Positions 15,576-37,825 of a stretch of 42,704 nucleotides of DNA are shown here, piece after piece; position 1 is the first letter of the stretch; each line of letters starts with the position of its first letter. The position numbers and the translations under genes were made by a program. The notes beneath the pieces were generated by a model. The model did not search any database and was not told the DNA's origin. It worked only from the letters and a program-made list of their open reading frames with translations. Source of the DNA: Comamonadaceae bacterium (GTDB lineage Bacteria > Pseudomonadota > Gammaproteobacteria > Burkholderiales > Burkholderiaceae_C); the NCBI GenBank assembly GCA_007280205.1, contig QYPX01000128.1, positions 1-42,704 of the forward strand, given 5' to 3'.

Positions 15576-17366
15576 ATGCAAGAGCGCGAGATACGTGATT
15601 TGATTGAAGAGGTACGCGTCGGCAAGTTGCCGCGGCGGCAATTTATCGGGCAACTGGTTGCACTTGGTCTGACGGCGCCGATGGCGTCCATGTTGCTGAT
15701 GCATGAAGGTATCGCGCAGACCCAGGCATCGATTCCCTACAAGCCGACCAAACGTGGTGGTGGTGGCCCGCTGAAGATCATCTACTGGCAAGCCGCTGTG
15801 CACTTGAACCCGCATTACGCGGGCGGCACCAAGGATCAGGACGCCAGCCGCATCTTCTACGAGCCGCTCGCTGGATGGGACTCCGAAGGCAACCTGGTGC
15901 CCGCACTGGCAACCGAGATCCCGAGTCGTCAAAACGGCGGCGTGGCGGCCGATGGCAAGTCCGTGACCTGGAAGTTGAAACGCGGTGTCACCTGGCACGA
16001 TGGCAAGCCCTTTACCGCCGACGACGTGGTGTTCACGGCCGCTTACGCCGCCGACCCCGCCGCCGCCATGATCACAGTGAGCATCTACAAAGACATCAAG
16101 GTTGAGAAGATCGATTCCCATACGGTGAAGGTCAGTTATCCCAAAGCCGTGCCGTTCTGGGCCGAAGCGCTGGTGGGCAGCACCGGCGCCATCCTGCCCA
16201 AGCATGTGTTCGAGCCCTTCATGGGAGCCAAGTCGCGTGAGAACCCGGCCAACACCAAGCCGGTGGGCACCGGCCCTTACAAGGTCGTTGACTTCAAGCC
16301 GGGCGACACCCTGCGCGCCGAAGCCTACGCCGGCTACCACGTGCCCAACCAGCCCTTCTTTGATACGCTGGAAATCAAGGGCGGCGGCGATGCCACCAGT
16401 GCAGCTCGCGCCGTGCTGCAAACGGGTGAGTACGACCTGGCGTGGAACCTGGCCGTGGAGGACGACATCCTCAAGCGCCTGGAGGCCGCGGGCAAGGGCA
16501 AGATGTCCTTTTATACGGGCAGCGACATCGAGTTTGTTGCTCTCAACGTCACCGACCCGTGGAACGAGGTCGACGGCGAGCGTGCCAGCGTCAAGTCCAA
16601 GCACCCGGCGTTCACCGACAAGGCGGTGCGCAATGCGATGTCGCTGCTGATCGACCGCAAGGGCATCCAGGAGGTGATCTACGGCCGCGGTGCCGTTGCC
16701 ACAGCCAACTTCCTGAACAACCCGCCACGCTTTCGCAGTCCGAATAACAAGTTCGAATTCAATATCGACAAAGCCATCCAGGTGCTTGAGGCGGCTGGCT
16801 GGAAGAAGGGTGCCGACGGTATCCGCGCCAAGGGCAATGTCAAGCTGAAGTTCGTCTTCCAGACCTCGGTCAGCGGCCCGCGGCAAAAGTGCCAGACCAT
16901 CATCAAGGACGCCTGCACCAAGGCCGGTATCGAGCTTGAGCTCAAGAGCGTGGTGGCGGCAGTGTTCTTTGGCGGCGATGCGGCCAACCCGGATACTTAC
17001 CAGAAGTTCTGGGCTGACATCGAGATGTTCACCACGACGATGACGCAGCCCGACCCGCAGACCTTCATGGAGCAGTTCACCACCGACCAGCTGGCACAAA
17101 AGGCCAACAAGTGGGCCAGCCGCAATCTGGTGCGCTGGACCAGCGCTGAGTACGACGCCACGTTCAAAGCGGCACAAGAGGAGTTTGATCCGGTCAAGCG
17201 GGCCGCCCTGTTCATCAAGATGAACGACATGGTTGTCAATGACGGCCATGTGATTCCGCTGTTTGCGCGCCCGCGCCCCTATGGCATTGTGAACAAGCTG
17301 GTGCCTGTCCTGTCTGCTTGGGACAGCGCCACCTGGTCGGTGGGTTACTGGTACCGCGAGGCTTGA
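15576..17366 (+). CDS. peptide ABC transporter substrate-binding protein (SBP_bac_5), Tat-type signal
   Basis: A 596-residue periplasmic solute-binding protein of cluster C (DppA/DdpA/OppA). Before the export signal is a basic 'KLPRRQFIGQLVALGL' segment: an RR pair at 20-21 suggests Tat export. The mature part has the family blocks 'LVPALATEIP', 'VTWHDGKPFTADDVVFT', 'PVGTGPYKV' and 'VRNAMSLLIDRKGI'. The ATG at 15576 has a GAGGAGA site 7 bases upstream, so the earlier in-frame GTG at 15561 is rejected. It starts a five-gene importer operon that ends beside dacB and a D-Ala-D-Ala dipeptidase gene. By analogy with E. coli ddpXABCDF, its ligand may be D-Ala-D-Ala or another cell-wall peptide; this is inference. 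Confidence 0.9.
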   Translation: MQEREIRDLIEEVRVGKLPRRQFIGQLVALGLTAPMASMLLMHEGIAQTQASIPYKPTKRGGGGPLKIIYWQAAVHLNPHYAGGTKDQDASRIFYEPLAGWDSEGNLVPALATEIPSRQNGGVAADGKSVTWKLKRGVTWHDGKPFTADDVVFTAAYAADPAAAMITVSIYKDIKVEKIDSHTVKVSYPKAVPFWAEALVGSTGAILPKHVFEPFMGAKSRENPANTKPVGTGPYKVVDFKPGDTLRAEAYAGYHVPNQPFFDTLEIKGGGDATSAARAVLQTGEYDLAWNLAVEDDILKRLEAAGKGKMSFYTGSDIEFVALNVTDPWNEVDGERASVKSKHPAFTDKAVRNAMSLLIDRKGIQEVIYGRGAVATANFLNNPPRFRSPNNKFEFNIDKAIQVLEAAGWKKGADGIRAKGNVKLKFVFQTSVSGPRQKCQTIIKDACTKAGIELELKSVVAAVFFGGDAANPDTYQKFWADIEMFTTTMTQPDPQTFMEQFTTDQLAQKANKWASRNLVRWTSAEYDATFKAAQEEFDPVKRAALFIKMNDMVVNDGHVIPLFARPRPYGIVNKLVPVLSAWDSATWSVGYWYREA

Positions 17367-17405
17367 GGCGGGTGCCTGTGCGAGCGCACTGGCGAAGAGG
17401 CCCAG

Positions 17406-18365
17406 GTGTTTAACTACATCCTGCGCCGGCTGCTGATCGCGCTGCCCAGCTTGCTGGGCATCAGCGTCATCCTGTTCACCGTGCTGGCGCTGGCGCCAGG
17501 CGACCCCTTCGAAGATCTGGCCAACAACCCCAGCGTGCCGCCCGAAGTGCGCATGGCGTTGCGCGTGCAATTCGGCCTGGATGACCCGATCTGGCAGCGG
17601 TACGTGCTCTGGTTGACGAATATGCTGCGTGGTGATTGGGGCTTTTCTTTCGTCAGCCGCATCGATGTGGACAAGCTCATCCTGCAGCGCATGCCGGTAA
17701 CGCTTGCCGTGATCGGCATGTCGCAGTTGCTGGCCTTGCTGGTGGCCGTGCCGGTGGGTGTGCTGGCCGCCGTCAAGCCCTATTCGTGGTTCGATCGCAT
17801 TGCCAGCACCATCGCCTTTGTCGGCTTCTCGCTGCCGACGTTTTTCACCGGGGTGTTGTTCATCCTGTTCTTTAGCATCTACCTGGGCTGGTTCCCCTTT
17901 GTTTACCGCGCCGACCTCACCGAGGTGGGCTGGCACTGGTGGTGGGCGCAGTTCAAGCAGAGCATCATGCCGGTGACGGTGCTGGGGCTGTTCCAGGCCG
18001 CCAGCTGGATGCGTTACGTGCGCTCATCGGTGCTTGATGTCGTGCGGCTGGACTACGTCACCACGGCGCGCAGCAAGGGTCTGGCGGAAAGCGTGGTGAT
18101 CAACAAGCACGTGGTGCGCAATGCGCTGATCCCGGTGGTCACGCTGGTGGCGCTACAGATGCCGGCGGTATTCGGTGGCGCCATCGTCACCGAGCAGATC
18201 TTTCGCATTCCCGGTATCGGCAGCCTGCTGATCGACGCCATCCTGCGTAACGACACACCGGTCGTCATGGCCGTGACCTTTGTCTTTAGTTGCCTCGTCA
18301 TCTTTTTCAACCTGGTAGCAGACTTGCTCTATGGCTGGCTCGACCCGCGAATTTCCTACCGATAG
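17406..18365 (+). CDS. peptide ABC transporter permease, DppB/DdpB-like
   Basis: A 319-residue inner-membrane permease with six hydrophobic segments. The N-terminal 'ILRRLLIALPSLLGISVILF' and the 'PGDPF' loop are typical of DppB-type subunits, and the cytoplasmic EAA loop 'ARSKGLAESVVINKHVVRNALIP' (about 219-241) couples to the ATPases. It starts with GTG at 17406, with GAAGAGG about 10 bases upstream, 39 bases after the binding-protein stop. It overlaps the start of the next permease by 35 bases. It would form the translocation channel with the neighbouring C-type permease. Confidence 0.92.
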   Translation: MFNYILRRLLIALPSLLGISVILFTVLALAPGDPFEDLANNPSVPPEVRMALRVQFGLDDPIWQRYVLWLTNMLRGDWGFSFVSRIDVDKLILQRMPVTLAVIGMSQLLALLVAVPVGVLAAVKPYSWFDRIASTIAFVGFSLPTFFTGVLFILFFSIYLGWFPFVYRADLTEVGWHWWWAQFKQSIMPVTVLGLFQAASWMRYVRSSVLDVVRLDYVTTARSKGLAESVVINKHVVRNALIPVVTLVALQMPAVFGGAIVTEQIFRIPGIGSLLIDAILRNDTPVVMAVTFVFSCLVIFFNLVADLLYGWLDPRISYR

Positions 18366-19322
18366 GCCGCATGAGCTGCCGCCGGTCATGCCGACCCCCG
18401 GGAGCGAGGCGCCCCCGGGCCGGCCGGACGACCGCGCCCGCAGCTTGAGCGTCTCTCCCTGGGCTGAGGCCTGGCGGCGCTTCAAGCGCCATCGCATGGC
18501 GTATTTCAGCCTGTGGCTGCTCGGCGCGCTGGTGCTGGCGTGCTGCTGGGGCCGCTGTTCTACAAGGTCGGCATCAACGATATCGACTTCAAGGCGCGGC
18601 TGGTCGATCCGTCGGCCGCCCACCTGATGGGCACCGATGACCTGGGCCGTGACCTGCTGGCCCGCGTGCTGTACGGCGGGCGCATCTCGCTGGCCGTGGG
18701 CGTGGCAGCCATGTTCATGGCGATCTCGGTGGGGGTCCTGGTTGGCGCCGTCGCTGGCATCTCGCGCGGTTGGGTCGACAACGTGCTGATGTGGATCACC
18801 GACCTCTTTCTGAGCCTGCCGCAGCTGCCGCTGTTGCTGCTGTTGATTTTCCTGTTCCGCGAGCCGCTGAAGGCGCTGCTCGGACTGGAGGCGGGCATCT
18901 TCATCCTGATTGTGGTGGTCATCGGTGGCTTTCGCTGGATGCCCGTGGCGCGCCTGGTGCGGGCCCAGTTCTTCAGCTTGCGCGAGAAGGAATTTGTCGA
19001 GGCCGCGCGCGCGCTCGGCGCCTCCACCACGCGCCAGGTCGTGCGCCACATCCTGCCCAACAGCCTGGGCCCGGTGATTGTGGCGGCCACCATCGACGTG
19101 GCCGCAGCCATCATCGCCGAGAGCACCCTGTCCTTCCTGGGTCTGGGTTTCCCGCCGGACATCCCGACCTGGGGCCGCATCCTCTACGACAGCCGTGACT
19201 ACATGGACGTTGCCATGCACTGGGCGCTGTTCCCGGGGCTGGCCATCTTCATGGTGGTGCTCACCATCAACTTCATTGGCGACGGCCTGCGCGACGCGCT
19301 GGACCCGAGGCGGGTGCTCTGA
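18331..19322 (+). pseudogene. peptide ABC transporter permease, DppC/DdpC-like, with a one-base frameshift
   Basis: The second permease of the importer. The reading frame from ATG 18331 covers a cytoplasmic N-terminus and TM1 ('FKRHRMAYFSLWLLGALVLA'), then runs into foreign sequence after 18540. The family sequence continues one frame away as 'LLGPLFYKVGINDIDF', through the EAA loop ('ARALGASTTRQVVRHILPN') to the stop at 19322. Adding one G between 18540 and 18541 ('GCG|[G]TGCTGCTGG') restores a protein of about 330 residues, reading A-V-L-L-G-P-L. Either a real inactivating deletion or a sequencing or assembly error. The second piece alone lacks TM1, so an internal GTG at 18513 is a poor start. 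The first frame starts inside the preceding permease gene. Confidence 0.85.
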
Positions 19323-19328
19323 TGCGCG

Positions 19329-19360
19329 CGCCGGGCCGCCCCAAGCAAGCGTCCAGGGGG
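19329..19360. repeat. short copy of a GGGCCGCCCCAAGC repeat
   Basis: GGGCCGCCCCAAGCA followed by CAGGGGGCA in the 47-base gap between permease C and the ATPase gene. The same GGGCCGCCCCAAGCA opens the longer repeat at 39648-39729, and the GGGGGCA part matches its closing arm. It is probably a shortened member of the same dispersed family. Confidence 0.5.
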
Positions 19361-19369
19361 CACTAGGAC

Positions 19370-20346
19370 ATGGCCTTGCTGGAAATCAAAGGGCTAAAAA
19401 CCCACTTCAAGACCGACGACGGTTGGCTGCACGCTGTGGACGGCGTAGACATGTCGATTGAAGCCGGCGAGACGCTGGGTGTGGTGGGCGAGTCGGGCTG
19501 CGGCAAGAGCGTCACGGCGAAGACGGTGATGAAGCTCATCGACATGCCGCCAGGCAAAATCGTCGCCGGGCAGGTACTGTGGCAGGGGCGCGATCTGGTG
19601 CCGCTAGGCGCCGAGGACATGCGCCGCATCCGCGCCAAGGAAATCGCCATCATCTTCCAGGAGCCGATGACGAGCCTGAATCCGGTCTATACCGTCGGCG
19701 AGCAGATCGCCGAGAGCATCCGCCTGCACGAGGGCCTGTCCCGCAAGGACGCCATCGCCCGCGCGGTGGAGATGCTCAAGCTGGTGCGCATTCCGACACC
19801 GGAGCGCCGCGTGCACGACTATCCGCACCAGTTCTCGGGGGGCATGCGCCAGCGCGTGATGATTGCCATGGCGCTCTCATGCAAGCCTCAACTACTGATT
19901 GCCGACGAGCCGACGACCGCGCTCGATGTCACGATCCAGGCACAGATTCTGGACCTGCTGGCTGAGCTCAAGTCCGAGATGGGCATGGCCATCATGCTGA
20001 TCACCCATGCCATGGGCGTGGTGGCCGAAGTGGCACAGCGGGTGGTCGTGATGTACGCTGGCCAGGTGGTTGAGGAGGCGCTGGTGGGCGAACTGTTTGC
20101 ACATCCGCGGCACCCGTATACGCAGGGCTTGATCCGCTCGATTCCGCGCATCGACAGTGCGCTGACAAAGAAGGGCCGGCTTGAAACCATCCCGGGTACG
20201 GTGCCCAAGCTGATCGCGCCGCCCGAGGGCTGCCGCTTTGCGCCACGCTGCAAATTCGCCATGCCGGCCTGTACCCAGGCTACACCCCCATTGCGGCAGG
20301 TGGCACCTGGGCACAAGGTGGCCTGCATTCTTGACACAGGCTCGCC

Positions 20347-20350
<4 letters not shown>
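19370..20350 (+). CDS. peptide ABC transporter ATP-binding protein, DppD/DdpD-like
   Basis: A 326-residue ATPase energising peptide import. Walker A GESGCGKS is at 40-47, the signature is 'FSGGMRQR', Walker B is '[12 protein letters not shown]', followed by the H-loop 'LITHAMGVV'. The C-terminal oligopeptide domain has the four-Cys pattern 'GCRFAPRC...AC...AC', which in DppD-type proteins can hold an Fe-S cluster. The stop overlaps the ATG of the second ATPase (ATGA at 20347-20350). The Walker B-following switch reads 'THAMG' where 'THDLG' is usual: the Asp next to the H-loop His is Ala here, a minor oddity. Confidence 0.94.
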
Positions 20351-21318
<968 letters not shown>

Positions 21319-21325
21319 CCGGGAC

Positions 21326-22759
21326 TTAACTGCCGCTGGCGACCCAGTCGATCAGGGCGTCCAGCGCTGGCCGTCCTTTTCTGGCCTCGGGGTCGTTGAT
21401 GAAAGCGACCACCACCCAGTCCTGATTGCGCACATCGCGCACGTAGCCGGCGACCGCCACTGCGTCCCTCAAAGTGCCGGTCTTGATTCTGGCGCGACCA
21501 GCCGCTGGCGACTCACGCAGGCGCCTGCGCATCGCGCCGTCGATGGCAACGATGGGCAAGCTGCTGGTAAATTCCGCAAACCAGTTGCTGCGTGCTCCGA
21601 TTTGCAACAAGCTGGCAAGTTGGCGGGCACTGATGCGCTCGAGCCGGGACAGGCCGGAGCCGTTCTCGAAGACCAGCCCCTGCGTCGCAATGCCACTCTT
21701 GTCGAACCATCTGAGCATGGTGGCATCGGCGTTGCCAAAGCTGTTGTCGCTGCGTCCCTCTTTGGGCAGTTGGGTGCCCAGGGTCAGGTAGAGCGTGCGC
21801 GCCATCAGGTTGTCGGAAGCCTTGTTGATGGGTTTGACCAGATCAGCCAGCGTCTCGGAATGGCGCTCCACCAGCAGCACTGCGTCCGGCGGCGTCAGGC
21901 CGTCCTTGACACGACCCTTCCATGTGCCGCCCAGCTCCTGCCAGAAGGACTGCAGAAAGCGTTCGATATAGAGGTTGCGATCGAGCAGGCTGAGTCTGGT
22001 TTTCGTTTTGCAGTTGCGGGGAAAGGCGCCACGCAGCATGACAGTGATGTTGCCATCGCTGGATGCTTGCACCAGCGGCGGGTCCCAGTCGTCGTCCCAG
22101 GCGTTGCAGGGCATATCCTTCAGCGAAAGGTCGGCGTCGATGAGAACACCGGCCAGCGGCGGTTGCGTGCGAACCAAGGTTTTCTGGCCGTTCGATTCGA
22201 GACTGAACTCGATCACGTTGCCGCTGAGCACCAGGGCATCCGGGATGACGTTGTAGTAGGCCTTGGGCGATTCATCAAAGTCTGGCACCCCGAGGTCGGG
22301 GCGCACCGGCTGGAAAAGACTCCGGTCCAATACCAGGTCTGCTTCCAGGTGCGCTACGCCCTGGGCGTGCAGGGAGCGGAACATGGCACGCAGGCCGTCC
22401 CAGTTCAGATTGGGTTCGCCGCCGCCGCGCAGGTACAGCGTGCCGCGCAAGGTCGCAGCTTCGATGCTGCCCTGGCTTAGCAACTCGGTGCGCCAGCGAA
22501 AGGTGGGGCCGAGTTCTTCCAGCGCCACCAGAGTGGTCGCCAGCTTCATGGTCGAGGCTGGCGCCATCGCACGCTCTTCCAGAACTGCGAGGCGCGGCGC
22601 GCCCCCCTGAAGCGGCAACACCAGCGCACTCAGGGAGGTCTCGGCAAGACCGGCATTGCGCAGGATGGCCGATACGTTTTCCGGCAAAATGGTCTGCGCG
22701 CAGACGGCGCTCGTGGCCAGCAGAAGCAGCGGAAGCCAGAAGAATTTTTGTTTCATCAT
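21326..22759 (-). CDS. dacB: D-alanyl-D-alanine carboxypeptidase/endopeptidase, PBP4 type
   Basis: A periplasmic S13 peptidase trimming the terminal D-Ala or cutting peptide cross-links in peptidoglycan. From ATG 22759 the protein has 477 residues, like E. coli PBP4. A signal peptide ('[17 protein letters not shown]') leads; then SxxK as 'PASTMK' (Ser69, Lys72), SxN as 'SDN' in 'NKASDNLMA', and KTG as 'RIKTGTL' near the C-terminus. A second ATG follows at once (22756), and a GTG at 22777 is possible but less attractive. It lies divergent from the D-Ala-D-Ala dipeptidase gene with 20 bases between starts, so the two promoters must lie in each other's coding sequence. Confidence 0.93.
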
Positions 22760-22779
22760 GTCTTGTTTATAGGACACCC

Positions 22780-23379
22780 ATGCTTTGTGAATTGATGGCG
22801 GGTCACGCCGATTTTCGGTCGCTCGCCACGATAGCGGGGATCAGTGTAGACCTGCGCTATGCCACTGCCAACAATTTTGTCGGACGCGATCTGTACGGTC
22901 AACTCGACTGCGCCTGGCTGCACCGGCAGGCAGCTGCTGGAATCGAAGCCGCGGTTGCTCACCTGCAGCGGCAACCTGGCGGTTATCGACTGCTGCTGCT
23001 CGACGCCTTGCGGCCGCACCGGGTGCAGGAAACGCTGTGGCAGTGCCTGGTGGGGACGCCCTTGCAACAGTATCTGGCGGATCCGGCCAAGGGGTCTATC
23101 CATTCCTTTGGCATGGCAGTCGATGTGACGCTGGTCGATAGCGCCGGGATGGAACTCGACATGGGAACCGGATTTGACGACTTGTCCGACTTGTCGCACC
23201 CAAAATACGAGCAAAAGCATCTGGCCCAGGGGTTGCTCAGCCAAACCCAGATCCACAACCGGCAGATGCTGCGTGAAGCGATGCTCGGCGCCGGCTTCTC
23301 GGGCATTTCGACCGAATGGTGGCATTTTGATTTTGGTGACAGGACGGTGGTCCGGCGCGACTATCTTCGCATCGCGTAG
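22780..23379 (+). CDS. ddpX: D-alanyl-D-alanine dipeptidase, VanX/DdpX family
   Basis: An M15D zinc dipeptidase splitting D-Ala-D-Ala. The 199-residue protein has the zinc motif SxHxxGxAxD as 'SIHSFGMAVD' (His108, Asp115), catalytic Glu179 and ligand His182 in 'EWWHFDF', and Arg78 in 'DALRP' where VanX has its substrate Arg. No signal peptide, so it acts in the cytoplasm, on dipeptides brought in by the nearby ABC importer or leaking from recycling. ATG at 22780 has AGGA five bases upstream. No vanH, vanA or vanRS genes are near, so vancomycin resistance is not implied; a catabolic DdpX role fits better. Confidence 0.92.
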   Translation: MLCELMAGHADFRSLATIAGISVDLRYATANNFVGRDLYGQLDCAWLHRQAAAGIEAAVAHLQRQPGGYRLLLLDALRPHRVQETLWQCLVGTPLQQYLADPAKGSIHSFGMAVDVTLVDSAGMELDMGTGFDDLSDLSHPKYEQKHLAQGLLSQTQIHNRQMLREAMLGAGFSGISTEWWHFDFGDRTVVRRDYLRIA

Positions 23380-27963: not shown

Positions 27964-29112
27964 TCAGACCTTGACGAACCAGCGCTGATGCCACATCAAC
28001 CAGGCGATGCCCAACATGAACAGGTTAAACAGGACCGCAAACAAGAACGACGCGTTGACAGCGTCCATTGGCAGGGTTTGAATGGATGCGTACAGGACGG
28101 CCTTGAGCGACAGCAGGCTGCCGTCAGCTTGAGTGATCTTGATGAGAAGCAGGGTCTTGGCGATGACACCGGAGAGGGCAAAGATGAACAGGGAATTCAT
28201 GCCAAAGATGACACCGGGATGAAGCAGGCGGGCGCTGCACTGTTGCAACTTGAGCGACGGTGTTGCGTCGAGCAGCCAGTAGAAAACGCCAAACACAACG
28301 AGCGCCCAGCCGTTCATGAAGATGGCATACGACACAGTCCACAGGCTCTTGTTGATCGGCATGAAGGTCACGTCGAGTACCGCACCAAGCCATAGGCATG
28401 CCAGACCGGCGATAAAGAGCCACACGGTTTTATCCGCCTTTGCCAAAGGCTGCTCAATCCAGCGCCCAGCCAGAACACCCAGCAACAGATTGGCAAGCGC
28501 GGGCAAGGTGCTGACCAGTCCTTCGGGGTCCCAACTGCGAGATGCGCTCCATAGATGGCCACTGAGCAGCCAGCGATCGACGAACGCGCCGAAGTCGCGC
28601 CCAGGCTCCAGCACCCCAACTCCGACAATGCCTGCAGCGTCAGGCACGGGCACCAGCAGCATCAGCACGCTGTACAGGGCAAACAGGCTTGCGATCCAGC
28701 CGCATTGCTGGCGCCAGTTGAACCACAGGACGATGGGAGCAGCCAGCAGCGTGCACAAGGCAATGCGCTGCAACACGCCCGGAATCCGCACCGTACTGAA
28801 ATCAAAGATTGGATAAAGGTTCAGCGCCAATCCGATCAGGAAAACCACGATGGCACGCTTGCTGAGCTTTCTCAGCAAGGCGCTTGGCTCGGCGCCGGCT
28901 TGGCTTTGACGGCTCAGCGACAGTGTCAGAGAGACGCCACTGATGAACAGGAAGAAGGGAAAGATCCAGTCGGTGAAGGTCCAGCCGTTCCACTTGGCAT
29001 GCGCCAGTTGCGAATACAGGTGAGCCCAATCACCCGGGTTGTTCACCAGCAGCATGGCTGCGATCGTGAAGCCGCGAAAGGCATCGAGCGAAAGCAGTCG
29101 GTTCGAAGTCAT
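27964..29112 (-). CDS. nagX: DUF5009/HGSNAT-like membrane acyltransferase, NagX type
   Basis: A 382-residue polytopic membrane protein with about ten hydrophobic segments. The N-terminal 'LLSLDAFRGFTIAAMLLVNNPG' (5-26) is the hallmark of the DUF1624/DUF5009 group related to heparan-alpha-glucosaminide N-acetyltransferase. In Shewanella and Xanthomonas, NagX is linked to GlcNAc use, proposed as a transporter or transmembrane acetyltransferase. Here it sits between murQ (ATGA overlap at 29109-29112) and the digH-like gene, so an amino sugar of peptidoglycan is a natural substrate. It might re-acetylate glucosamine or muramic acid residues of de-N-acetylated glycan; this is a proposal. Symbol is by family and context. 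Confidence 0.82.
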   Translation of the reverse strand: MTSNRLLSLDAFRGFTIAAMLLVNNPGDWAHLYSQLAHAKWNGWTFTDWIFPFFLFISGVSLTLSLSRQSQAGAEPSALLRKLSKRAIVVFLIGLALNLYPIFDFSTVRIPGVLQRIALCTLLAAPIVLWFNWRQQCGWIASLFALYSVLMLLVPVPDAAGIVGVGVLEPGRDFGAFVDRWLLSGHLWSASRSWDPEGLVSTLPALANLLLGVLAGRWIEQPLAKADKTVWLFIAGLACLWLGAVLDVTFMPINKSLWTVSYAIFMNGWALVVFGVFYWLLDATPSLKLQQCSARLLHPGVIFGMNSLFIFALSGVIAKTLLLIKITQADGSLLSLKAVLYASIQTLPMDAVNASFLFAVLFNLFMLGIAWLMWHQRWFVKV

Positions 29113-29993
29113 GGCTCCCCGATGGCCAGTCTCAGGTTGTCACGCGCCTCGGCCAAAAGTTGCGTGGCCTGTGCGGCGCTGACCTTGTTCTTCAGCGCCA
29201 CGATCGCCACCTTGACCTGAAAGGCGCAATCCTTCAGTGTCTGGCTCGCCAATTCCTCGCTGGCGCCGCTGACCAGGGCGGTCAAGGCGACGGCGCGTCG
29301 AAGCAGCTTGGCATTGGTTGGTTTCAGGTCCACCATCAAGTTGCCGTAGACCTTGTGCAGGCGCACCATCACGGCGCTGGAAAAAGTGTTCAGGGCGATC
29401 TTTTGTGCAGTGCCGGCTTTCAGGCGGGTGCTACCGGAGATGAGTTCGGCCCCGGTGTCCAGCGTGATGCCAATATCGGCCTGCGTCGCCAGTGGCGCCA
29501 GCGCGTTGTTGGCGATGCCAATGCTCAGGGCGCCGACCGAGCGAGAGGCAGCAAGAGCCCCCATCGCGTAAGGCGTGTTGCCCGATGCGGCCAGCAGCAG
29601 CAGCACGTCCATTGCCTTGAGGCCGACGGCCATGATGTCCGTTGAGCCTTGCTCGAAGTTGTCCTCGGCGCCTTCAACGGCTTGATAAACCGCTGACGGG
29701 CCACCCGCCAGCAGCGCCACGGCACGTTCCCTGGGCCAGGAGAACGTGGGGTACAACTCAACGCTGTCGAGCAGACCCAGGCGGCCTGATGTACCGGCAC
29801 CGACATAAATCAGGCGCCCACCTTCGATCAGGCGCGCCGCGGCAGCGTCAACGGCCCTGGCTAGCTGGGCGCTGGCCGCGCGCACCGCGTGGACGGCGTT
29901 GAACTGATCGTCCACCAGGGCATGGATCAATTGATCGGTTGGATATTGGTCCAGCGTGGTGTGCGCAGTGCTGGGAGTTTCCGTCTTCAACAT
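29109..29993 (-). CDS. murQ: N-acetylmuramic acid 6-phosphate etherase
   Basis: Cleaves the lactyl ether of MurNAc-6-phosphate to GlcNAc-6-phosphate and D-lactate in the cytoplasm, the committed step of MurNAc recovery. From ATG 29993 the protein has 294 residues, the usual length. The SIS-fold substrate loop 'YVGAGTSGRLGLLDSVELYPTFSW' region (63-86) includes Glu79, and 'EGAEDN' holds Glu110, matching the two catalytic acids of E. coli MurQ (Glu83, Glu114). The C-terminal UBA-like helix is present. A frame start at 30050 would add 19 residues and enter the divergent promoter region. First gene of the leftward operon, facing ampG1 across 89 bases. The MurNAc-6-P source is discussed with the kinase at 35029. 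Confidence 0.95.
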   Translation of the reverse strand: MLKTETPSTAHTTLDQYPTDQLIHALVDDQFNAVHAVRAASAQLARAVDAAAARLIEGGRLIYVGAGTSGRLGLLDSVELYPTFSWPRERAVALLAGGPSAVYQAVEGAEDNFEQGSTDIMAVGLKAMDVLLLLAASGNTPYAMGALAASRSVGALSIGIANNALAPLATQADIGITLDTGAELISGSTRLKAGTAQKIALNTFSSAVMVRLHKVYGNLMVDLKPTNAKLLRRAVALTALVSGASEELASQTLKDCAFQVKVAIVALKNKVSAAQATQLLAEARDNLRLAIGEP

Positions 29994-30082
29994 GGGTGTT
30001 TGTGCCTGCTCTTTGGGATGCGCTGCACAGCTTACTTTATTCCGGCGCAAATTTTCGACCTGATTTCAACTATAAACGTTGG
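29994..30082. promoter_or_regulatory. divergent promoter region between murQ and ampG1
   Basis: The 89 bases between the two starts must drive both operons. On the plus strand TATAAA (30071-30076) could serve as a -10 box, which would place the transcript start on or next to the ampG1 ATG at 30083 and make that mRNA leaderless; no good -35 box is seen. On the minus strand TTGAAA is a possible -35 box without a good partner. No palindrome that would suggest a MurR- or NagC-type operator stands out. Confidence 0.4.
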
Positions 30083-31360
30083 ATGCAACAAGTCGACAAA
30101 GCAGCAAGAGGAGTCTGGTGGTGGGTGCCATCGCTCTATTTTGCGCAGGGCCTGCCCTACGTTGCGGTGATGACGATGTCGGTCGTCTTCTACAAGAACA
30201 TGGGCATTTCCAACACCGACATTGCCCTGTACACGAGTTGGCTGTATCTGCCGTTTGTCATCAAACCCCTTTGGTCGCCCTTTGTCGACATGTTCAGGAC
30301 CAAGCGCTGGTGGATCATCACCATGCAGTTGCTGGTGGGTTCGATCTTTGCGCTGGTTGCGCTGGTCATTCCCATGGCCAGCTATTTCCAGTTGACGCTG
30401 GCATTTTTCTGGTTACTGGCCTTCAGTGCCGCAACCCACGATATTGCTTCTGACGGCTTTTACATGCTGTCGCTCAAGCAGCATCAGCAGGCGGCTTATG
30501 TCGGAGCACGCAGCATGTTCTTTCGCCTGTCGATGCTGACCGGGCAGGGCGCCCTGGTTTTTCTGGCCGGAAAATTGACGGAACTGACTGGCAACACCGG
30601 CTTCGCCTGGTCGGTCGTGTTCTTTGTTCTGGCGGCGATGTTTCTGTCGCTGTTTGTTTACCACCGCCTGGTGTTGCCGGTCCCCGCGGCAGACCGGGCT
30701 GTGGTCAGTGAGCAAAGCATGGGTGCGGAATTCCTGTCGGTCTTCCGGAAGTTCGTGGCCAAGAAGGACATCTCCCGGGTGCTCTTGTTCCTGCTCCTGT
30801 ACCGGTTTGGTGAGTCCCAACTGGTCAAGTTGGCGCCGCCCTTCCTGCTTGATTCCAACGCCAAGGGGGGACTGGGGCTTTCTACCGCTCATGTCGGCAT
30901 CGTCTATGGCAGCATCGGCATGGTGGCTCTGACGGTGGGCGGCCTGCTGGGCAGTTACCTCATTGCGCGCGATGGGCTCAAGCGCTGGCTCTGGCCGATG
31001 GCCATGGCCATCAATGTTCCGCACCTGGTTTACGTTTATCTGGCAATGGCTTTACCCGCCAACCTGTATCTGATTGGTGTGGCCGTGGCCTTTGAGCAAT
31101 TGGGCTACGGCTTTGGCTTTACCGCCTACATTCTGTTCATGATCATGACGGCAGACGGCGAACACAAGACCGCGCACTACGCCATCTGCGCCGGCTTCAT
31201 GGCCATGGGCATGATGCTGCCCGGCATGTTCAGCGGCTGGATTCAGGCCAGCGTCGGTTACGCCAATTTCTTCATCTGGGTTTGCGCTGCCGCCATCCCT
31301 TGTTTCATCGCGACCGCCTTGATCAAGGTGGACCCTGCTTTTGGCAGGGAGCAGCGATGA
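30083..31360 (+). CDS. ampG: AmpG-like muropeptide permease, first copy
   Basis: An MFS inner-membrane permease of 425 residues with about twelve hydrophobic segments. AmpG-type blocks include 'WVPSLYFAQGLPYV', 'ISNTDIALYTSWLYLPFVIKPLWSPFVD' as adjoining segments at about 34-61, 'ATHDIASDGFYM' and 'AHYAICAGFMAMGMMLPG'. AmpG imports GlcNAc-anhMurNAc-peptides by proton symport. ATG 30083 has no clear Shine-Dalgarno; a possible -10 box ends seven bases before it. The stop overlaps the ATG of the serine hydrolase (ATGA at 31357). Compared with the second copy over 75 aligned residues near the N-terminus, 59 are identical, so the pair is a fairly close duplication. Fewer TM segments than E. coli AmpG (14). 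Confidence 0.9.
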   Translation: MQQVDKAARGVWWWVPSLYFAQGLPYVAVMTMSVVFYKNMGISNTDIALYTSWLYLPFVIKPLWSPFVDMFRTKRWWIITMQLLVGSIFALVALVIPMASYFQLTLAFFWLLAFSAATHDIASDGFYMLSLKQHQQAAYVGARSMFFRLSMLTGQGALVFLAGKLTELTGNTGFAWSVVFFVLAAMFLSLFVYHRLVLPVPAADRAVVSEQSMGAEFLSVFRKFVAKKDISRVLLFLLLYRFGESQLVKLAPPFLLDSNAKGGLGLSTAHVGIVYGSIGMVALTVGGLLGSYLIARDGLKRWLWPMAMAINVPHLVYVYLAMALPANLYLIGVAVAFEQLGYGFGFTAYILFMIMTADGEHKTAHYAICAGFMAMGMMLPGMFSGWIQASVGYANFFIWVCAAAIPCFIATALIKVDPAFGREQR

Positions 31361-32736
31361 AGTTCTTTAGAACTGCACTGACCACCGGAACGCTTACCAT
31401 GCGAAGTCATGGGGTCGCCTGTATTTTCCTGCTTGCTGCGTTGATGAGCGACTGTTGCGCCGCCCAGAGCTCCGCCCTGCAAAGCAGACTGCAGGCCGTC
31501 ATGAACGATCCGGCGAAGCCGCTGGCGAGCTTGTCGGTGGTGGCGATCCGCGATGGGAAGATGGTCTATCAGGGCTATTTTGGCAAGCGCTCCATCGATG
31601 CATTGAGTCCTGCGAAAGGCGTAGCGGTGGACAGCAAGACGCTGTTCCGGGTCGCTTCCATTTCGAAACTCGTCACAACCCTTGGCGTGATGCAACTGGT
31701 GGAGCAGCGCAAGCTCGACCTGGATGCGGATGTCAGCACCTATCTGGGGTTCAGACTGCGCAACCCGAATTTTCCTGAGGCACGAATCAGCACGCGCATG
31801 CTGCTCAATCACACTTCATCGCTGCGCGATGAGGGTGGCTATTCATTTCCGATAGGGCAAAGCCTGCAAAGCGTGCTTGATCCGCAGGGTGAGAACGATG
31901 GCATGGGCGGACATTGGGCGCTTTCGAGCAGCAGCGCTGACCGCAGCCCGGGTCGTTATTTTGAGTACGTGAATCTGAACTGGGGCGTGCTGGGTACCGT
32001 CATCGAAGCGGTCAGTGGGCAACGCTTTGACCGCTACATGAAACAGGCCGTGCTGGCTCCGCTGCGGATCGCGGGTGGTTTCAATGCGGAGGAGTTGTCG
32101 GAAGACGAGATCGGCAATCTTGCAGTCTTGTACCGCAAGCGAAGCGGCGAGGTTTGGGATGCAAACGGCCCCTGGGTGGCGCAAGTGGACGACTATCAGG
32201 GCAAAGTACCAGCCGTTCGCGCTGGACTGGAGCGCTACCGGCTCGGGAGCAATGCCACGCCCTTCAGTCCGCAAGGGGGCTTGCGCATCCGTGCCGGCGA
32301 TCTTGCCAGGTTGATGCTGCTGCTTATCAACGGGGGTGAACTCGACGGCGTTCGCCTGCTAAGCACGGCATCGGTTCAGACCATGCTGAGTGAAACCTGG
32401 CGTTATGACGAGAATGCACGAAACGGCGACAACTACAAAGGCTTGTTCAACGCCTGGGGCCTGGGTGTGCAGAAGTTCCTCGATCTCAGCGCGCCGGGGC
32501 GGGGCGATCGCCTGGTGGCGCGTGGCGGCTTGACCGGCTACGGCCACCTTGGATTTGCTTACGGTCTGCAGAGCGCCTTCTTCTTCGATCCGGTCAAGCG
32601 TCTGGGCATGATCTACATTGTCAGCGGGGTCGGCTTCGATCCGGAGCTCGACGCCGGACAATATTCGAGTCTGAACTCTTGGGAAGAAAAAATACTTGAC
32701 ACTCTTTACCGCCACGCCATTCTGGAAGTGCCATGA
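31357..32736 (+). CDS. beta-lactamase-fold serine hydrolase (class C/AmpH-like), exported
   Basis: A 459-residue PF00144 protein with an N-terminal signal ('ACIFLLAALMSDCCAAQ', about 21-37). Active-site motifs are SxxK as 'SISK' (Ser101, Lys104), YxN as 'YVN' (Tyr202, Asn204) and a HxG block 'GYGHLGF' near the end in place of KTG. Family members include AmpC, AmpH DD-peptidases, D-aminopeptidases and esterases. Wedged between two ampG genes with ATGA overlaps at both ends, it is more likely a periplasmic peptidase that trims muropeptides before import than a resistance enzyme. The precise bond cut cannot be read from sequence. Confidence 0.86.
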   Translation: MKFFRTALTTGTLTMRSHGVACIFLLAALMSDCCAAQSSALQSRLQAVMNDPAKPLASLSVVAIRDGKMVYQGYFGKRSIDALSPAKGVAVDSKTLFRVASISKLVTTLGVMQLVEQRKLDLDADVSTYLGFRLRNPNFPEARISTRMLLNHTSSLRDEGGYSFPIGQSLQSVLDPQGENDGMGGHWALSSSSADRSPGRYFEYVNLNWGVLGTVIEAVSGQRFDRYMKQAVLAPLRIAGGFNAEELSEDEIGNLAVLYRKRSGEVWDANGPWVAQVDDYQGKVPAVRAGLERYRLGSNATPFSPQGGLRIRAGDLARLMLLLINGGELDGVRLLSTASVQTMLSETWRYDENARNGDNYKGLFNAWGLGVQKFLDLSAPGRGDRLVARGGLTGYGHLGFAYGLQSAFFFDPVKRLGMIYIVSGVGFDPELDAGQYSSLNSWEEKILDTLYRHAILEVP

Positions 32737-34019
32737 ACCCAGCTGATATGACCACGGCAGTGAGACCGAGGAGTTTGTGGTGGTGGATACCCTCGCTCTA
32801 TTTTGGCCAGGGTATTCCGTACGTGGTGGTCATGACCCTGTCGGTCATCATGTACAAGAAGCTGGGAATCTCCAACACGGATATTGCCCTGTACACCAGC
32901 TGGTTGTATTTGCCCTGGGTCATCAAGCCTTTGTGGGCGCCCTTTGTTGACATGTTTCGCACCAAGCGTTTCTGGATCGTCAGCATGCAACTGCTCATCG
33001 GCGCGCTGTTGGCCGGAGTTGCCTTGACGATCCCGATGCCACACTTCTTTCAGCTCACGCTGGCCGTGTTCTGGCTGATGGCGTTCAGTTCGGCCACGCA
33101 TGACATTGCCGCAGACGGCTTCTATATGCTGGCCCTGAAGGAGCACGAGCAGGCAGCGTTTGTGGGTGTTCGCAGCACCTTCTACCGGATTTCCATGCTG
33201 GCGAGCCAAGGGGGCTTGGTCTTTCTGGCGGGCCGGGTTGAAGAAGCGACCGGTAATGTGGCACTGGCCTGGACCGTCGTCTTCTTTGTCTTGGCGGCCA
33301 TGTTCCTGTCGCTTGGCGCGTATCACAAATGGGTCTTGCCCCAACCGACGAGTGACGTCGAGCGCGTTCGTGTGACAGCGCCGATGCGCGAGTTCTTCGC
33401 GGTCTTTGCCGCCTTCCTGAAGAAGAAGGAAATTGCCGCCATCCTCGCTTTCCTGCTGCTGTACCGTTTCGGTGAGGCTCAACTGCTGAAACTCGCAGCC
33501 CCTTTTCTTCTGGACAGCGCAGCCAACGGCGGTCTGGCGCTGTCAACGCAGCAGGTTGGCATTGTTTACGGCACGATCGGGATTCTGTGTTTGACCCTGG
33601 GCGGGCTGCTGGGCGGCTACGTTATTTCCCGCCATGGCTTGAAGCGCTGGCTTTGGCCCATGGTGCTGTCAGTGAATGTGCCACACCTGGTCTACGTTTA
33701 CCTGTCGATGGCCATGCCAAGCAATATCTGGCAGATCGGTGCCGCTGTTGCGATCGAGCAGTTTGGTTATGGCTTTGGTTTTGCCGCTTATCTGCTTTAT
33801 ATGATCATGATTTCAGACGGCCGGAACAAGACGGCGCATTACGCGATCTGTACCGGCTTCATGGCCTTGGGCATGATGCTGCCGGGCATGATGAGTGGCT
33901 GGGTTCAGAGCCAGCTTGGCTATGCCAACTTCTTTGTCTGGGTTTGTCTTTCGGCCGTTCCTGCCTTCACCGCGACTGCCTTGATTCGGGTCGATCCGGG
34001 ATTTGGCAAGAAGGAATAA
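32733..34019 (+). CDS. ampG: AmpG-like muropeptide permease, second copy
   Basis: A 428-residue paralogue of the permease at 30083, with the same segment order and the same blocks ('WIPSLYFGQGIPYV', 'ATHDIAADGFYM', 'AHYAICTGFMALGMMLPG'). Differences concentrate in the cytoplasmic loop around residues 205-225 and in the termini, which could reflect different ligand ranges. Starts with ATG overlapping the previous TGA at 32733-32736. Two adjacent AmpG-type permeases might divide muropeptides from bare disaccharides, or peptide-rich from peptide-poor ones; Pseudomonas also carries two, though unlinked. The next gene follows after 30 bases. Confidence 0.9.
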   Translation: MNPADMTTAVRPRSLWWWIPSLYFGQGIPYVVVMTLSVIMYKKLGISNTDIALYTSWLYLPWVIKPLWAPFVDMFRTKRFWIVSMQLLIGALLAGVALTIPMPHFFQLTLAVFWLMAFSSATHDIAADGFYMLALKEHEQAAFVGVRSTFYRISMLASQGGLVFLAGRVEEATGNVALAWTVVFFVLAAMFLSLGAYHKWVLPQPTSDVERVRVTAPMREFFAVFAAFLKKKEIAAILAFLLLYRFGEAQLLKLAAPFLLDSAANGGLALSTQQVGIVYGTIGILCLTLGGLLGGYVISRHGLKRWLWPMVLSVNVPHLVYVYLSMAMPSNIWQIGAAVAIEQFGYGFGFAAYLLYMIMISDGRNKTAHYAICTGFMALGMMLPGMMSGWVQSQLGYANFFVWVCLSAVPAFTATALIRVDPGFGKKE

Positions 34020-35028: not shown

Positions 35029-35934
35029 ATGAGCACAGGCCTTGGAATCGACGCCGGTGGCAGCCAGACCCGTTGGGCCTTGGTGGGGTCGGACCAGAGC
35101 GTGCTTGCCGAAGGCAGTGTTGCGGGTTTTAGCGCCCTCCAACTGGGTGGCGAAGCGGGTCATCGCAAGGTCAGCGAAATTCTGAAGAGTCTGGCTGATC
35201 AGGCGCTGGGCTGGGGCGCTGTGTCTGGCGTGCATGCCGGCGTGACCGGCTTTGGCGGACTGCAGGAGCGCTCAGGACAGATTCTTCACACCTTGCTGGC
35301 CCGGCAATTCGAGTTGCCCATCGACGCTGTTGTTCTGAGCAACGATATTGAACTGGCCTGTCTTGCGGCATTTGAGCCGGGCATGGGCTATCTGGTCTAT
35401 GCTGGCACCGGATCGATCGCCGGATTTATGGATGCGCAGCGGGAGTTTCACCGTGCCGGGGGACGAGGCGGCATTCTGGACGATGGTGGTAGTGGCTACT
35501 GGATCACGGTTGAGGCCTTGCGCAAGATCTGGCGTGCAGAGGATGAGAGACCTGGCTGCTGGGCTGAATCACCGATGGCGGTGTCCCTGTTCAAGGCCAT
35601 TGGCGGTCACGACTGGTCCTGTTCGCGCAAACTGATTTATGGAGCCAGCCGCGGACAGATCGGGCAACTGGCAATAGCCGTTGCGGCCGAGGCCGACAGC
35701 GATCCTCAGGCGCGGGACATCTTGCAGCGAGCCGGCCATGAACTGGCTCGTCTGGGTGCTGCCATGGTGGCAAGGTTTGGTGTTCGTCCCATCGTTCTGG
35801 CTGGGCGGGTGCCTCAGCTTCATTCGTTGATCGAGCAGTCGATGAGGGAGCGCTTGCCCCCAGAATGCGACTTGCGGTTAGTGAATCTTCAAGCTCATAT
35901 TGCGGCGGCGCGCCTGGCGCTGAAAAAGGTCTGA
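35029..35934 (+). CDS. BadF/BadG-type ATPase, putative amino-sugar kinase (NagK/MurK-like)
   Basis: A 301-residue member of the BadF/BadG/BcrA/BcrD ATPase family that includes eukaryotic GlcNAc kinase and clostridial MurK. Phosphate-1 is 'GIDAGGSQTRWAL' (6-18), the probable catalytic Asp is Asp106 ('SNDIELA'), phosphate-2 is 'YAGTGSIAG' (124-132), and 'LAGRVPQL' near 264-271 is at the adenosine-site position. MurK phosphorylates both MurNAc and GlcNAc at O6. With murQ divergent nearby and neither AnmK nor a MurP-type PTS permease in the window, this kinase is the natural candidate to make MurNAc-6-P for MurQ. Starts ATG 35029, four bases after the previous stop. Confidence 0.85.
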   Translation: MSTGLGIDAGGSQTRWALVGSDQSVLAEGSVAGFSALQLGGEAGHRKVSEILKSLADQALGWGAVSGVHAGVTGFGGLQERSGQILHTLLARQFELPIDAVVLSNDIELACLAAFEPGMGYLVYAGTGSIAGFMDAQREFHRAGGRGGILDDGGSGYWITVEALRKIWRAEDERPGCWAESPMAVSLFKAIGGHDWSCSRKLIYGASRGQIGQLAIAVAAEADSDPQARDILQRAGHELARLGAAMVARFGVRPIVLAGRVPQLHSLIEQSMRERLPPECDLRLVNLQAHIAAARLALKKV

Positions 35935-35935
35935 C

Positions 35936-36724: not shown

Positions 36725-36745
36725 GGGGCTTGCCCTTGGGCGGCG

Positions 36746-37825
36746 CTACAGGACGGCGTTTTCCAACAGGGTCAAGGTCTGGGAGAAGGTGTCCAGGCGC
36801 GCATTGACGCCCAGCGGCAGCGTCATCTGGTTGGCGATATGGCCAATCGAGTAGCCGCTTACTGCAGGGATGCGCAACAGATCGAGATGACTGTCCAAGG
36901 TTTCGTTCAGGCTCAGCGACGACTCGCTTTCGGGCGCTTCGCACTTCTCGAAAACACCCAGCAGCAAGGCCGACGCCGTCCTGAGACCCTGACTCAAGTC
37001 GAGTTGGGTCAGCATGCGATCGATCCGGTAAGGCGCTTCGCTGATATCCTCCAGGAACAAAATGCGGCGCCGCAGTTCGGCTGCATACGGTGTGCCCGAC
37101 AAAGCCGCCACCAGACTCAAATTGCCGCCGGTCAGGCGTCCGGTCGCCGTTCCGTGGCGCAGGGTCCTGACTTGAAACTGGCTTGCTGTTTCAGCCTTGA
37201 CCCGGTTTTCTTCCGCCATCAGCATCGAGTACTCTTTTTGCGGCTGCATCAATATCGCCTTCAGATGCTGCTTCGAGTAATCTGAAAAAGTCGAAATTCC
37301 CACCGGGCCGTGAAAAGTCACCAAGTGTGTCTGGCGATGGATCGCCAGATGCAGGCAAGTGACATCAGAGTAGCCAACAAAGATCTTCGGATGTTTCCGA
37401 ATCAATTTGTAATCGATATGAGGTAGCAGCGAAATGCCGCCGGAGCCTCCGGTGGCAGCCCACACCGCATGGACTTGCGGGTCGGCAAACATCGAGTGCA
37501 GATCCTCCAGGCGCTGTGCAACCGTGCCGGCATAACGGCCGCGGCGTGCCAGCACATGCTTGCCAAGCTTGACTTTCACGCCCAGATCTTCAAGGTTGCG
37601 CACCGATTTGTCGATGCCGTCCTGCTCCAGATAGCCGCAAGGCGTGATCAAGCCCACGACATCGCCTTCCTTCAGGCGGGGCGGTTTGATGAGGGCGCTT
37701 CTCTTGACCGGATCCTTGACGGGGGCAGCGCTGGCCGGGAACAGCGATGCAGCCAGAGACAGGGCAGCACCCTTGGCCAAATTGCGCCGGCTCAGCGGAT
37801 TGAAGTTGTCAGGTGGAGCTTCCAA
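36746..37825 (-). CDS. ldcA: L,D-carboxypeptidase (LdcA, S66) with a twin-arginine signal
   Basis: Removes the terminal D-Ala from tetrapeptide stems (mDAP-D-Ala bond). The 359-residue protein has the S66 nucleophile Ser153 in 'GYSDVT', the oxyanion loop 'ATGGSGG' (124-130), the Glu of 'FLEDISEAPYRIDRML' and the His of 'SIGHI'. E. coli LdcA is cytoplasmic and about 300 residues; this one has an extra N-terminal segment with 'SRRNLAKGAALSLAASLFPASAA' spanning 12-34, a Tat-type signal (Arg13-Arg14). An in-frame TGA lies three codons upstream, so the first usable start is TTG at 37825. It follows ptsI by 34 bases on the same strand and converges with amiD, 21 bases away. Confidence 0.9.
   Translation of the reverse strand: MEAPPDNFNPLSRRNLAKGAALSLAASLFPASAAPVKDPVKRSALIKPPRLKEGDVVGLITPCGYLEQDGIDKSVRNLEDLGVKVKLGKHVLARRGRYAGTVAQRLEDLHSMFADPQVHAVWAATGGSGGISLLPHIDYKLIRKHPKIFVGYSDVTCLHLAIHRQTHLVTFHGPVGISTFSDYSKQHLKAILMQPQKEYSMLMAEENRVKAETASQFQVRTLRHGTATGRLTGGNLSLVAALSGTPYAAELRRRILFLEDISEAPYRIDRMLTQLDLSQGLRTASALLLGVFEKCEAPESESSLSLNETLDSHLDLLRIPAVSGYSIGHIANQMTLPLGVNARLDTFSQTLTLLENAVL

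What the first reader, a model, noticed from the sequence alone, without database searches (positions are those of the whole stretch)
15576..37825. A large peptidoglycan scavenging and recycling locus in one place
Within 22 kb lie a Ddp-like peptide importer, PBP4, a VanX-type dipeptidase, a TonB receptor, MurQ, a NagX-like acyltransferase, a DigH-like glycosidase, two AmpG permeases, an exported serine hydrolase, an AspA-like zinc enzyme, a BadF-type kinase, an AmiD-like amidase and an exported LdcA. In E. coli the equivalents are scattered. The three dense gene groups are linked by ATGA or few-base junctions. The set suggests a dedicated pathway for eating external or shed cell wall, comparable to a polysaccharide utilisation locus. 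Family roles are established; the pathway as a unit is my inference.
Basis: partly seen in the sequence, partly recalled or inferred. Interest (0 to 1): 0.85.

Follow-up and report, generated by a model that had tools for sequence, protein, structure and literature searches.

The report
Cell-wall-eating island with swapped MurA
A Rhodoferax-like bacterium carries a block of about 20 genes that look built to take up and digest bacterial cell wall, a set that recurs in rearranged order in other betaproteobacteria, and the block also holds the only copy found of MurA, the enzyme that starts cell-wall synthesis, while the usual copy is missing from its normal place.

Summary
The gene list is real, but the importer is Opp-like rather than specifically Ddp-like, and the two AmpGs are a divergent subfamily. 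The grouping is not chance: of 79 loci found with the serine hydrolase, 49 carry at least 3 of 11 other locus genes, 24 none; four carry all 11, two of them in another order. Relatives add NagA, NagB-II-like and epimerase-like genes, fitting muropeptide catabolism. Closest known: the Tannerella forsythia muropeptide operon; this is a larger betaproteobacterial variant.

Two parts lie left of the given span. A SpmA-SpmB fusion (14117-15358) recurs at the locus in several lineages. MurA (11492-12769) is Bacteroidota-like with Asp for the catalytic Cys; in five carriers it is the only strong MurA match, and native murA is missing between bolA and hisG. Against strict coupling, G299 and G304, without a hydrolase match, also lack native murA there.

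External feeding, substrates and MurA's role are inferred, not shown.

The parts
11492..12769 (-). Divergent, Bacteroidota-like MurA with Asp at the catalytic Cys position; only strong MurA match in the five carriers
   Evidence: TIGR01072 450 bits, cut-off 393 (the G330 copy is cut by its contig end); loop GGDVIGRRRLDTH; native murA missing at bolA-hisG
14117..15358 (+). SpmA-SpmB fusion, two Gate domains, predicted inner-membrane transporter
   Evidence: PF07670 two stretches; homologues annotated spore maturation protein, split into two genes in Legionella and Vescimonas; 5/5 carriers, 0/7 same-genus non-carriers
15576..17366 (+). Solute-binding protein, Opp/App-like, Tat-like leader
   Evidence: SBP_bac_5, best PDB AppA 1xoc
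17406..18365 (+). ABC permease, best model Opp4B (below cut-off)
18513..19322 (+). ABC permease
   Evidence: start not certain
19370..20350 (+). Oligopeptide ABC ATPase
20347..21318 (+). Oligopeptide ABC ATPase
21326..22759 (-). PBP4 (DacB) DD-peptidase, exported
   Evidence: PF02113, TIGR00666 above cut-off
22780..23379 (+). D-Ala-D-Ala dipeptidase, DdpX-like, no export signal seen
   Evidence: PF01427; PRK10178 151.6 bits, cut-off 176
23456..26299 (+). TonB-dependent receptor
   Evidence: PF00593, PF07715
26329..26360 (+). Terminator-like hairpin between the convergent receptor and GHL10 genes
   Evidence: consensus match only
26435..27961 (-). GHL10 lipoprotein, Cwp19/DigH-like, likely lytic transglycosylase
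   Evidence: PF02638; Cwp19 5oq2 254 bits; lipobox LASC
27964..29112 (-). NagX-like transmembrane acetyltransferase
   Evidence: PF07786; NagX model 163 bits, cut-off 480
29109..29993 (-). MurQ, MurNAc-6-phosphate etherase
29994..30082 (.). 89-base divergent region between murQ and ampG1
30083..31360 (+). AmpG-like MFS permease 1 (divergent subfamily)
   Evidence: TIGR00901 171 bits, cut-off 350
31357..32736 (+). Exported PF00144 serine hydrolase with SxxK and YxN conserved in 7 aligned homologues
32733..34019 (+). AmpG-like MFS permease 2
   Evidence: TIGR00901 182 bits
34050..35024 (+). AstE/AspA-type zinc hydrolase, no export signal seen
   Evidence: PF24827; predicted fold matches AstE/EutE
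35029..35934 (+). BadF-type amino-sugar kinase, weakly MurNAc/GlcNAc kinase-like
   Evidence: PF01869, PDB 8zo3 46 bits
35936..36724 (+). AmpDh2-type lipoprotein amidase
   Evidence: 4bpa AmpDh2 344 bits, lipobox LSGC
36746..37825 (-). LdcA-type LD-carboxypeptidase with Tat-like leader
   Evidence: PF02016, PF17676

Best explanation
It is an accessory peptidoglycan scavenging and catabolism island lying between the glcD-like gene (ends 9862) and ptsI (37860). Inferred route: the TonB receptor brings wall fragments into the periplasm; the AmpDh2-like amidase strips stem peptides and the GHL10 enzyme cuts the glycan to (anhydro)disaccharides; PBP4, exported LdcA and the serine hydrolase trim and un-crosslink peptides; NagX may re-acetylate glucosamine units; the AmpG-like permeases import sugars and the Opp-type importer imports peptides; GH3 (NagZ candidate) and AnmK elsewhere in the genome plus the BadF kinase give MurNAc-6-phosphate; MurQ turns it into GlcNAc-6-phosphate and D-lactate; DdpX and the AspA-like enzyme finish peptides. 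The SpmAB fusion is probably a further transporter of wall-derived solutes. Shown: gene content, conservation of the set, presence/absence at one site, MurA replacement at sequence level. Inferred: substrates, direction of flow, external origin of the food.
For: Families. Recurrence: of 79 serH loci, 49 have at least 3 of 11 core genes, 6 have one or two, 24 none; L171 (UKL13-2, complete genome) and L167 (Rhodocyclaceae MAG) have 11/11 in another order. Four of the 79 (L137, L138, L139, L144) are the same contigs as G330, G334, G308, G323. Complementing genes: NagA (TIGR00221 258 bits, above cut-off) and a NagB-II-like gene beside murQ in L152, epimerase-like in L142; NagA matches inside or beside the locus in G404, G334 and G027. 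Co-occurrence in the family: 47 of 50 murQ genomes have the AspA-like gene against 40 of 249 others (not corrected for relatedness). Canonical AmpG over cut-off in 9 of 10 genomes, AnmK in 9 of 10, GH3 in 10 of 10, away from the locus. Empty site in 8 of 8 same-genus genomes read.
Against: No functional data. Of 20 family genomes read around aspA, 15 show no core partner and 3 only ddpX; only 9 of the 47 genomes with both genes have murQ and aspA within about 12 kb of each other (read by eye). NagA was not found in the window's own 84%-complete MAG. 24 of 79 serH loci have none of the core genes. serH was found in only 7 of 120 relatives. No sugar-type regulator was seen in the window locus. 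Clustered own-wall recycling would look similar.
Confidence: 0.72

Rival explanations
1. The locus serves recycling of the cell's own wall turnover (or division-related remodelling), not feeding on foreign wall; the extra AmpGs and amidase simply raise capacity.
For: The enzyme families act on fragments of any origin; PBP4, LdcA and AmpDh2-type amidase have own-wall roles in other bacteria (recalled).
Against: Canonical AmpG (9/10), AnmK (9/10) and GH3 (10/10) are kept elsewhere; the locus has its own TonB receptor and is absent at the same site in 8 same-genus genomes.
Confidence: 0.2
2. It is mainly a GlcNAc/chitin-type amino-sugar locus with wall enzymes attached.
For: NagX and the BadF kinase score best to the Shewanella GlcNAc models NagX_SO_3504 and NagK_SO3507; NagA and NagB-II-like genes are neighbours in L152.
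Against: Both scores are far below cut-off (163/480 and 73/370); MurQ, amidase, LdcA, PBP4 and DdpX are wall enzymes by family; no chitinase hit among the window genes scanned.
Confidence: 0.06
3. The MurA replacement is incidental: an old xenologous displacement in a Rhodoferax subclade, merely located beside the scavenging genes. (Competes with the novel case, not with the main explanation.)
For: G299 and G304 lack native murA at bolA-hisG yet gave no serH match; trees allow a single event in one subclade.
Against: The same MurA type also lies at or near the scavenging locus in G027 (another genus), L142 and L151 (not placed to genus), and inside the inserted block in the carriers.
Confidence: 0.5

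Closest known systems
Tannerella forsythia muropeptide/MurNAc genes Tanf_08345-08385 (ampG, ybbC, murT, murK, murQ, lytB; passages of PMC5388701, PMC7670621, PMC5790795)
   Same: AmpG-type permease, sugar kinase and MurQ in one cluster, there shown to serve environmental muropeptides and MurNAc
   Different: Here a TonB receptor, peptide importer, PBP4, LdcA, DdpX, AmpDh2-like amidase, GHL10, NagX, SpmAB and MurA are included; no MurT- or ybbC-type hit among the window genes scanned; Tannerella is stated to lack MurA/MurB (abstract start of PMC7670621), here MurA is exchanged
E. coli peptidoglycan recycling (AmpG, AmpD, NagZ, AnmK, MurQ, LdcA, DdpX; recalled)
   Same: Same chemistry and several families
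   Different: E. coli genes are scattered (recalled); here they are clustered, several carry export signals, and AmpG-type genes are additional copies
Pseudomonas aeruginosa AmpDh2 (PDB 4bpa, 4bol; organism recalled)
   Same: Amidase matches over nearly full length, 344 bits
   Different: Genomic setting
Clostridioides difficile Cwp19 (PMC6016235, passages) and E. coli DigH (recalled)
   Same: GHL10 catalytic domain; Cwp19 reported as a lytic transglycosylase
   Different: Lipoprotein here; no CWB2 hit
Bacteroidota MurA (Parabacteroides, Phocaeicola, Prevotella records)
   Same: Asp loop PGGDxIGRRRLDTHF; 45-47% identity
   Different: Lies in a scavenging island of a betaproteobacterium; 34-37% identity to native Rhodoferax-type MurA

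Membership tests
Tannerella-type muropeptide scavenging operon | AmpG-like permease + MurNAc kinase-like + MurQ linked | tested here: met
   (kinase by weak similarity only)
Tannerella-type muropeptide scavenging operon | MurT symporter and ybbC in the cluster | tested here: not met
   no such hit among the window genes scanned; so it works like it but is not the same operon
Tannerella-type muropeptide scavenging operon | Growth on or uptake of external muropeptides | not testable with these tools
   needs experiment
Polysaccharide utilisation locus (SusC/SusD) | SusC-type receptor with SusD partner | tested here: not met
   TIGR04056 27.5 bits vs cut-off 368; no SusD hit in genes scanned
E. 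coli ddp operon (D,D-dipeptide import) | DdpX plus DdpABCDF-type importer | tested here: inconclusive
   DdpX model 151.6/176; binding protein and first permease fit Opp4 models best and are below all cut-offs; ATPases and second permease not run against NCBIfam
AmpG (TIGR00901) | Score above family cut-off | tested here: not met
   171 and 182 bits vs 350; canonical copy at G000:C63 521 bits
MurQ etherase | NCBIfam subfamily cut-off | tested here: met
   PRK05441 342/168, PRK12570 287/255; TIGR00274 279/302 just below
MurA | TIGR01072 cut-off and active-site loop | tested here: met
   450/393 bits; loop aligned, Cys replaced by Asp; activity not tested
SpmA/SpmB | Two Gate domains; homologues annotated as spore maturation proteins side by side | tested here: met
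   not compared with the Bacillus proteins themselves
MurK-type kinase | Phosphorylation of MurNAc | not testable with these tools
   weak match to MurNAc/GlcNAc kinase 8zo3, 46 bits; hexokinase 2e2n scores higher, 54 bits

The most novel reading that the evidence does not exclude
Wall-eating and wall-making are coupled on one variable genome block: the island brings a Bacteroidota-type Asp MurA that (by recalled biochemistry of Cys115) should escape the Cys-dependent shut-down by UDP-MurNAc, letting the cell keep making wall while flooded with imported wall fragments; the native Cys MurA is then lost, which locks the island in as essential. The SpmAB fusion is a new transporter of wall-derived solutes, which would give the sporulation proteins SpmA/SpmB a biochemical role.
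Probability: 0.2. Interest if true: 0.82.

Novelty: new variant of a known kind. Interest (0 to 1): 0.6.

Why it matters
Bacterial wall is an abundant food, but the best documented gene set for eating it that I found is from an oral bacterium (Tannerella). A conserved set in named cultured genera (Massilia, Undibacterium) makes such a pathway testable elsewhere. The swapped MurA shows an enzyme that is normally essential exchanged for a divergent one that sits inside a scavenging island, and the recurring SpmAB neighbour gives a concrete lead for proteins for which a 2012 survey (PMC3533761, passages) found no known activity.

Tried and rejected
Considered and dropped or left open: that the set is a chance cluster (recurrence in other families); that the importer is specifically Ddp; that carriers acquired the island independently (the hisD tree puts G334 with G311, but the concatenated tree supports that pair at only 0.507 and the PTS tree groups all five carriers at 1.000: inconclusive); that the AspA-like enzyme is an MpaA-type peptidase (fold best matches AstE/AspA/EutE deacylases, Csd4 first at rank 36: open). 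Plasmid searches gave only weak relatives of the hydrolase (2 records) and of the MurA type (13 records), all below 60% identity. Foldseek for SpmAB gave only weak matches to DASS/TRAP-type transporters (best E 2.3e-3, none under 0.001, TM about 0.43). Literature searches that might have named such a betaproteobacterial locus showed none in their listings: (open-access library only; one search was too broad to be informative; other locus names may have been missed).
Full report
What was checked. The window is contig C152 of a 4.19 Mb metagenome-assembled genome, 84.2% complete. A genome placed in the same genus, G334, has its locus on the same contig as L138, a record titled Rhodoferax sp.. 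The genes in the finding were tested with Pfam and most also with NCBIfam. All are present. PBP4 is on the minus strand (21326-22759). The junctions are tight as described: four 4-base overlaps and several gaps of 1-4 bases. Leader patterns mark the GHL10 protein and the amidase as lipoproteins and LdcA and the solute-binding protein as Tat-like; PBP4, the serine hydrolase and the receptor look exported by eye.

Is the grouping more than chance? In 299 family genomes the AspA-like gene is found in 87 and MurQ in 50; 47 of the 50 murQ genomes also have the AspA-like gene, against 40 of the 249 others (Fisher p 6e-27, not corrected for relatedness). Linkage is much rarer: by eye, 9 of those 47 (window included) have the two genes within about 12 kb. 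Around aspA in 20 family genomes, chosen for long contigs, G061 and G173 show a partial locus, G197, G066 and G046 show only a ddpX-aspA pair, and the other 15 show no core partner. serH was found in 7 of 120 relatives: the window, four others of its genus and two of other families. The four (G330, G323, G334, G308) carry the locus in nearly the same order (G323 shows no ampG2, G334 and G308 no nagX); of the two others, G404 carries 9 of 11 core genes and G388 6 of 11, rearranged. A scan of named genomes with the serine hydrolase alignment gave 79 loci, the best 80 matches of 219 kept. Of the 79, 49 carry at least 3 of 11 other locus genes within the fetched flanks, 6 carry one or two and 24 none. 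Four of the 79 are the same contigs as the four same-genus genomes above. L171 (UKL13-2, complete genome) and L167 (a Rhodocyclaceae MAG) carry all 11 in a different order. The commonest form, in Massilia and relatives, is murQ-ampG-nagX-ghl10-badF-amiD, an ORF of about 300 aa (LysR-type in L161), ddpX, with the hydrolase divergent. G037 has a serH-like gene (44%), badF, nagX, ampG, a NagA-like gene (by eye), SpmAB and receptor near murQ, ghl10, amiD, PBP4, ldcA and ddpX.

What relatives add. Beside murQ in L152 lie NagA (258 bits, above cut-off) and a NagB-II-like gene (271 bits, below its 430 cut-off); L142 has an L-Ala-D/L-Glu epimerase-like gene (213 bits, cut-off 500); L147 has a peptide-binding protein; regulators are LysR-type in L161 and L143 and GntR-UTRA in L181. 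NagA matches fall inside or beside the locus in G404, G334 and G027. NagA was found in 9 of 10 genomes but not in the window genome itself. In G281 permease and ATPase genes of an Opp-type importer lie between murQ and ampG, which supports the importer as a working part.

Accessory, not housekeeping. Canonical AmpG above cut-off is found in 9 of 10 genomes searched (not G308), AnmK in 9 of 10 (not G323), and a GH3 gene (NagZ candidate) in 10 of 10, away from the locus. AmpG-type matches inside the loci score 136-182 bits against a 350 cut-off; G404 has one such gene outside its locus. At the same site eight same-genus genomes read glcD-like gene, zero to two short ORFs, ptsI (9 of 10 genomes searched had a ptsI match, and 8 of these 9 were fetched). 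So the stretch between 9862 and 37860 is an insertion relative to them, or a loss in them.

How it probably works. The amidase is AmpDh2-like (344 bits). The GHL10 protein matches Cwp19 (254 bits), reported to have lytic transglycosylase activity (PMC6016235, passages). Together they would give free stem peptides and anhydro-disaccharides. These fit NagZ, AnmK, kinase and MurQ, yielding GlcNAc-6-phosphate and D-lactate. The kinase match to a MurNAc/GlcNAc kinase is weak (46 bits; a hexokinase scores 54). The AspA-like enzyme is predicted to fold like AstE/EutE deacylases; its substrate is open. All flow and substrate statements are inference.

(a) SpmAB: 14117-15358 has two Gate domains and homologues annotated as spore maturation or nucleoside recognition proteins, split in two adjacent genes in Vescimonas and Legionella. 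It is in 5 of 5 carriers and 0 of 7 same-genus non-carriers, and lies at the locus in G404, G388, G027, G037, L142, L151, L152, L154 and L159 (5 of 79 in all, partly because flanks end at 10 kb). It is away from the locus in G258, G075 and G173 and not found in G021, G061, G252, G197 and G066. In Legionella adelaidensis the pair lies between an amidase-like and a DD-metalloendopeptidase gene. A model (pLDDT 84) matches ion-transporter folds only weakly. PMC3533761 (passages) states in 2012 that there were no data on enzymatic activity or structure of SpmA and SpmB.

(b) MurA: 11492-12769 is 34-37% identical to native Rhodoferax-type MurA and 45-47% to three Bacteroidota MurAs, and shares with the latter the loop PGGDxIGRRRLDTHF, with Asp at the catalytic Cys. 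All 7 island-type proteins read have Asp, all 5 native ones read have Cys. In the five carriers the only MurA match above 26 bits is of this type (G330's copy, 329 bits, is cut by its contig end); 6 of 7 same-genus non-carriers have a match of native score (559-567 bits), G302 also one of 298 bits, and G303 had none full-length. At the native site the five carriers have bolA followed directly by hisG, gap -9 to 35 bases, against about 1300 bases with murA in G284, G311 and G317. Against a strict coupling: G299 and G304, with no hydrolase match, also lack native murA there; G309, G300 and G312 were uninformative. G027 has both types, the island type about 12 kb from its murQ. L142 and L151 have the island type next to and about 9 kb from the hydrolase. 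G404 and G388 have the native-score type only. Asp-type MurA is naturally fosfomycin-insensitive in Mycobacterium tuberculosis and Borrelia (PMC5652432, passages). MurA is inhibited by UDP-MurNAc (PMC5062083, passage); that this depends on the Cys is recalled, not from a call.

Comparison with the known. The Tannerella forsythia operon (PMC5388701, PMC7670621, PMC5790795: passages) is the closest documented system found: AmpG, MurK and MurQ in one cluster for environmental muropeptides and MurNAc. The present locus shares that core but no MurT- or ybbC-type hit was seen, and it adds many parts. It is not a SusC/SusD PUL. Searches that might have shown a published betaproteobacterial equivalent listed none (open-access library only).

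Verdict. Feeding on external wall is the best reading, not proven. The MurA exchange and the SpmAB link are the surprising parts; whether they are functionally tied to scavenging is open.

Noticed in passing
window 15576-26299 vs G308, G330, G334, G323: Mosaic conservation: in G308 the binding protein, permeases and receptor are 92-96% identical to the window while PBP4, ddpX, ghl10, murQ and the hydrolase are 66-75%; in G330 and G323 the receptor is only 67% while its neighbours PBP4, ddpX, ghl10 are 82-88%. Looks like swapping of substrate-recognition genes by recombination.
   Followed up: no
window 12889-14098: HTH (HipB/Y4mF-like antitoxin) and AbiEii nucleotidyltransferase pair between murA and SpmAB; present in G330, not matched at this place in G308 or G334.
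   Followed up: partly
window 9885-11423: Acyl-CoA ligase-like gene between the glcD-like gene and murA; not matched between fad and murA in G308 or G334.
   Followed up: partly
window 37860-40435: PTS enzyme I and EIIA-Man next to the locus; present at the empty site in 8 of 8 genomes read, so a fixed neighbour.
   Followed up: yes
G197, G066, G046 (regions): A ddpX-aspA gene pair without the rest of the locus, suggesting these two enzymes act together.
   Followed up: no
L143:6658-7578: Ornithine-cyclodeaminase/mu-crystallin family gene inside the Undibacterium locus, possibly for DAP or D-amino acid products.
   Followed up: no
G303: No full-length MurA match in a 99% complete same-genus genome; assembly gap or another cause not resolved.
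   Followed up: no
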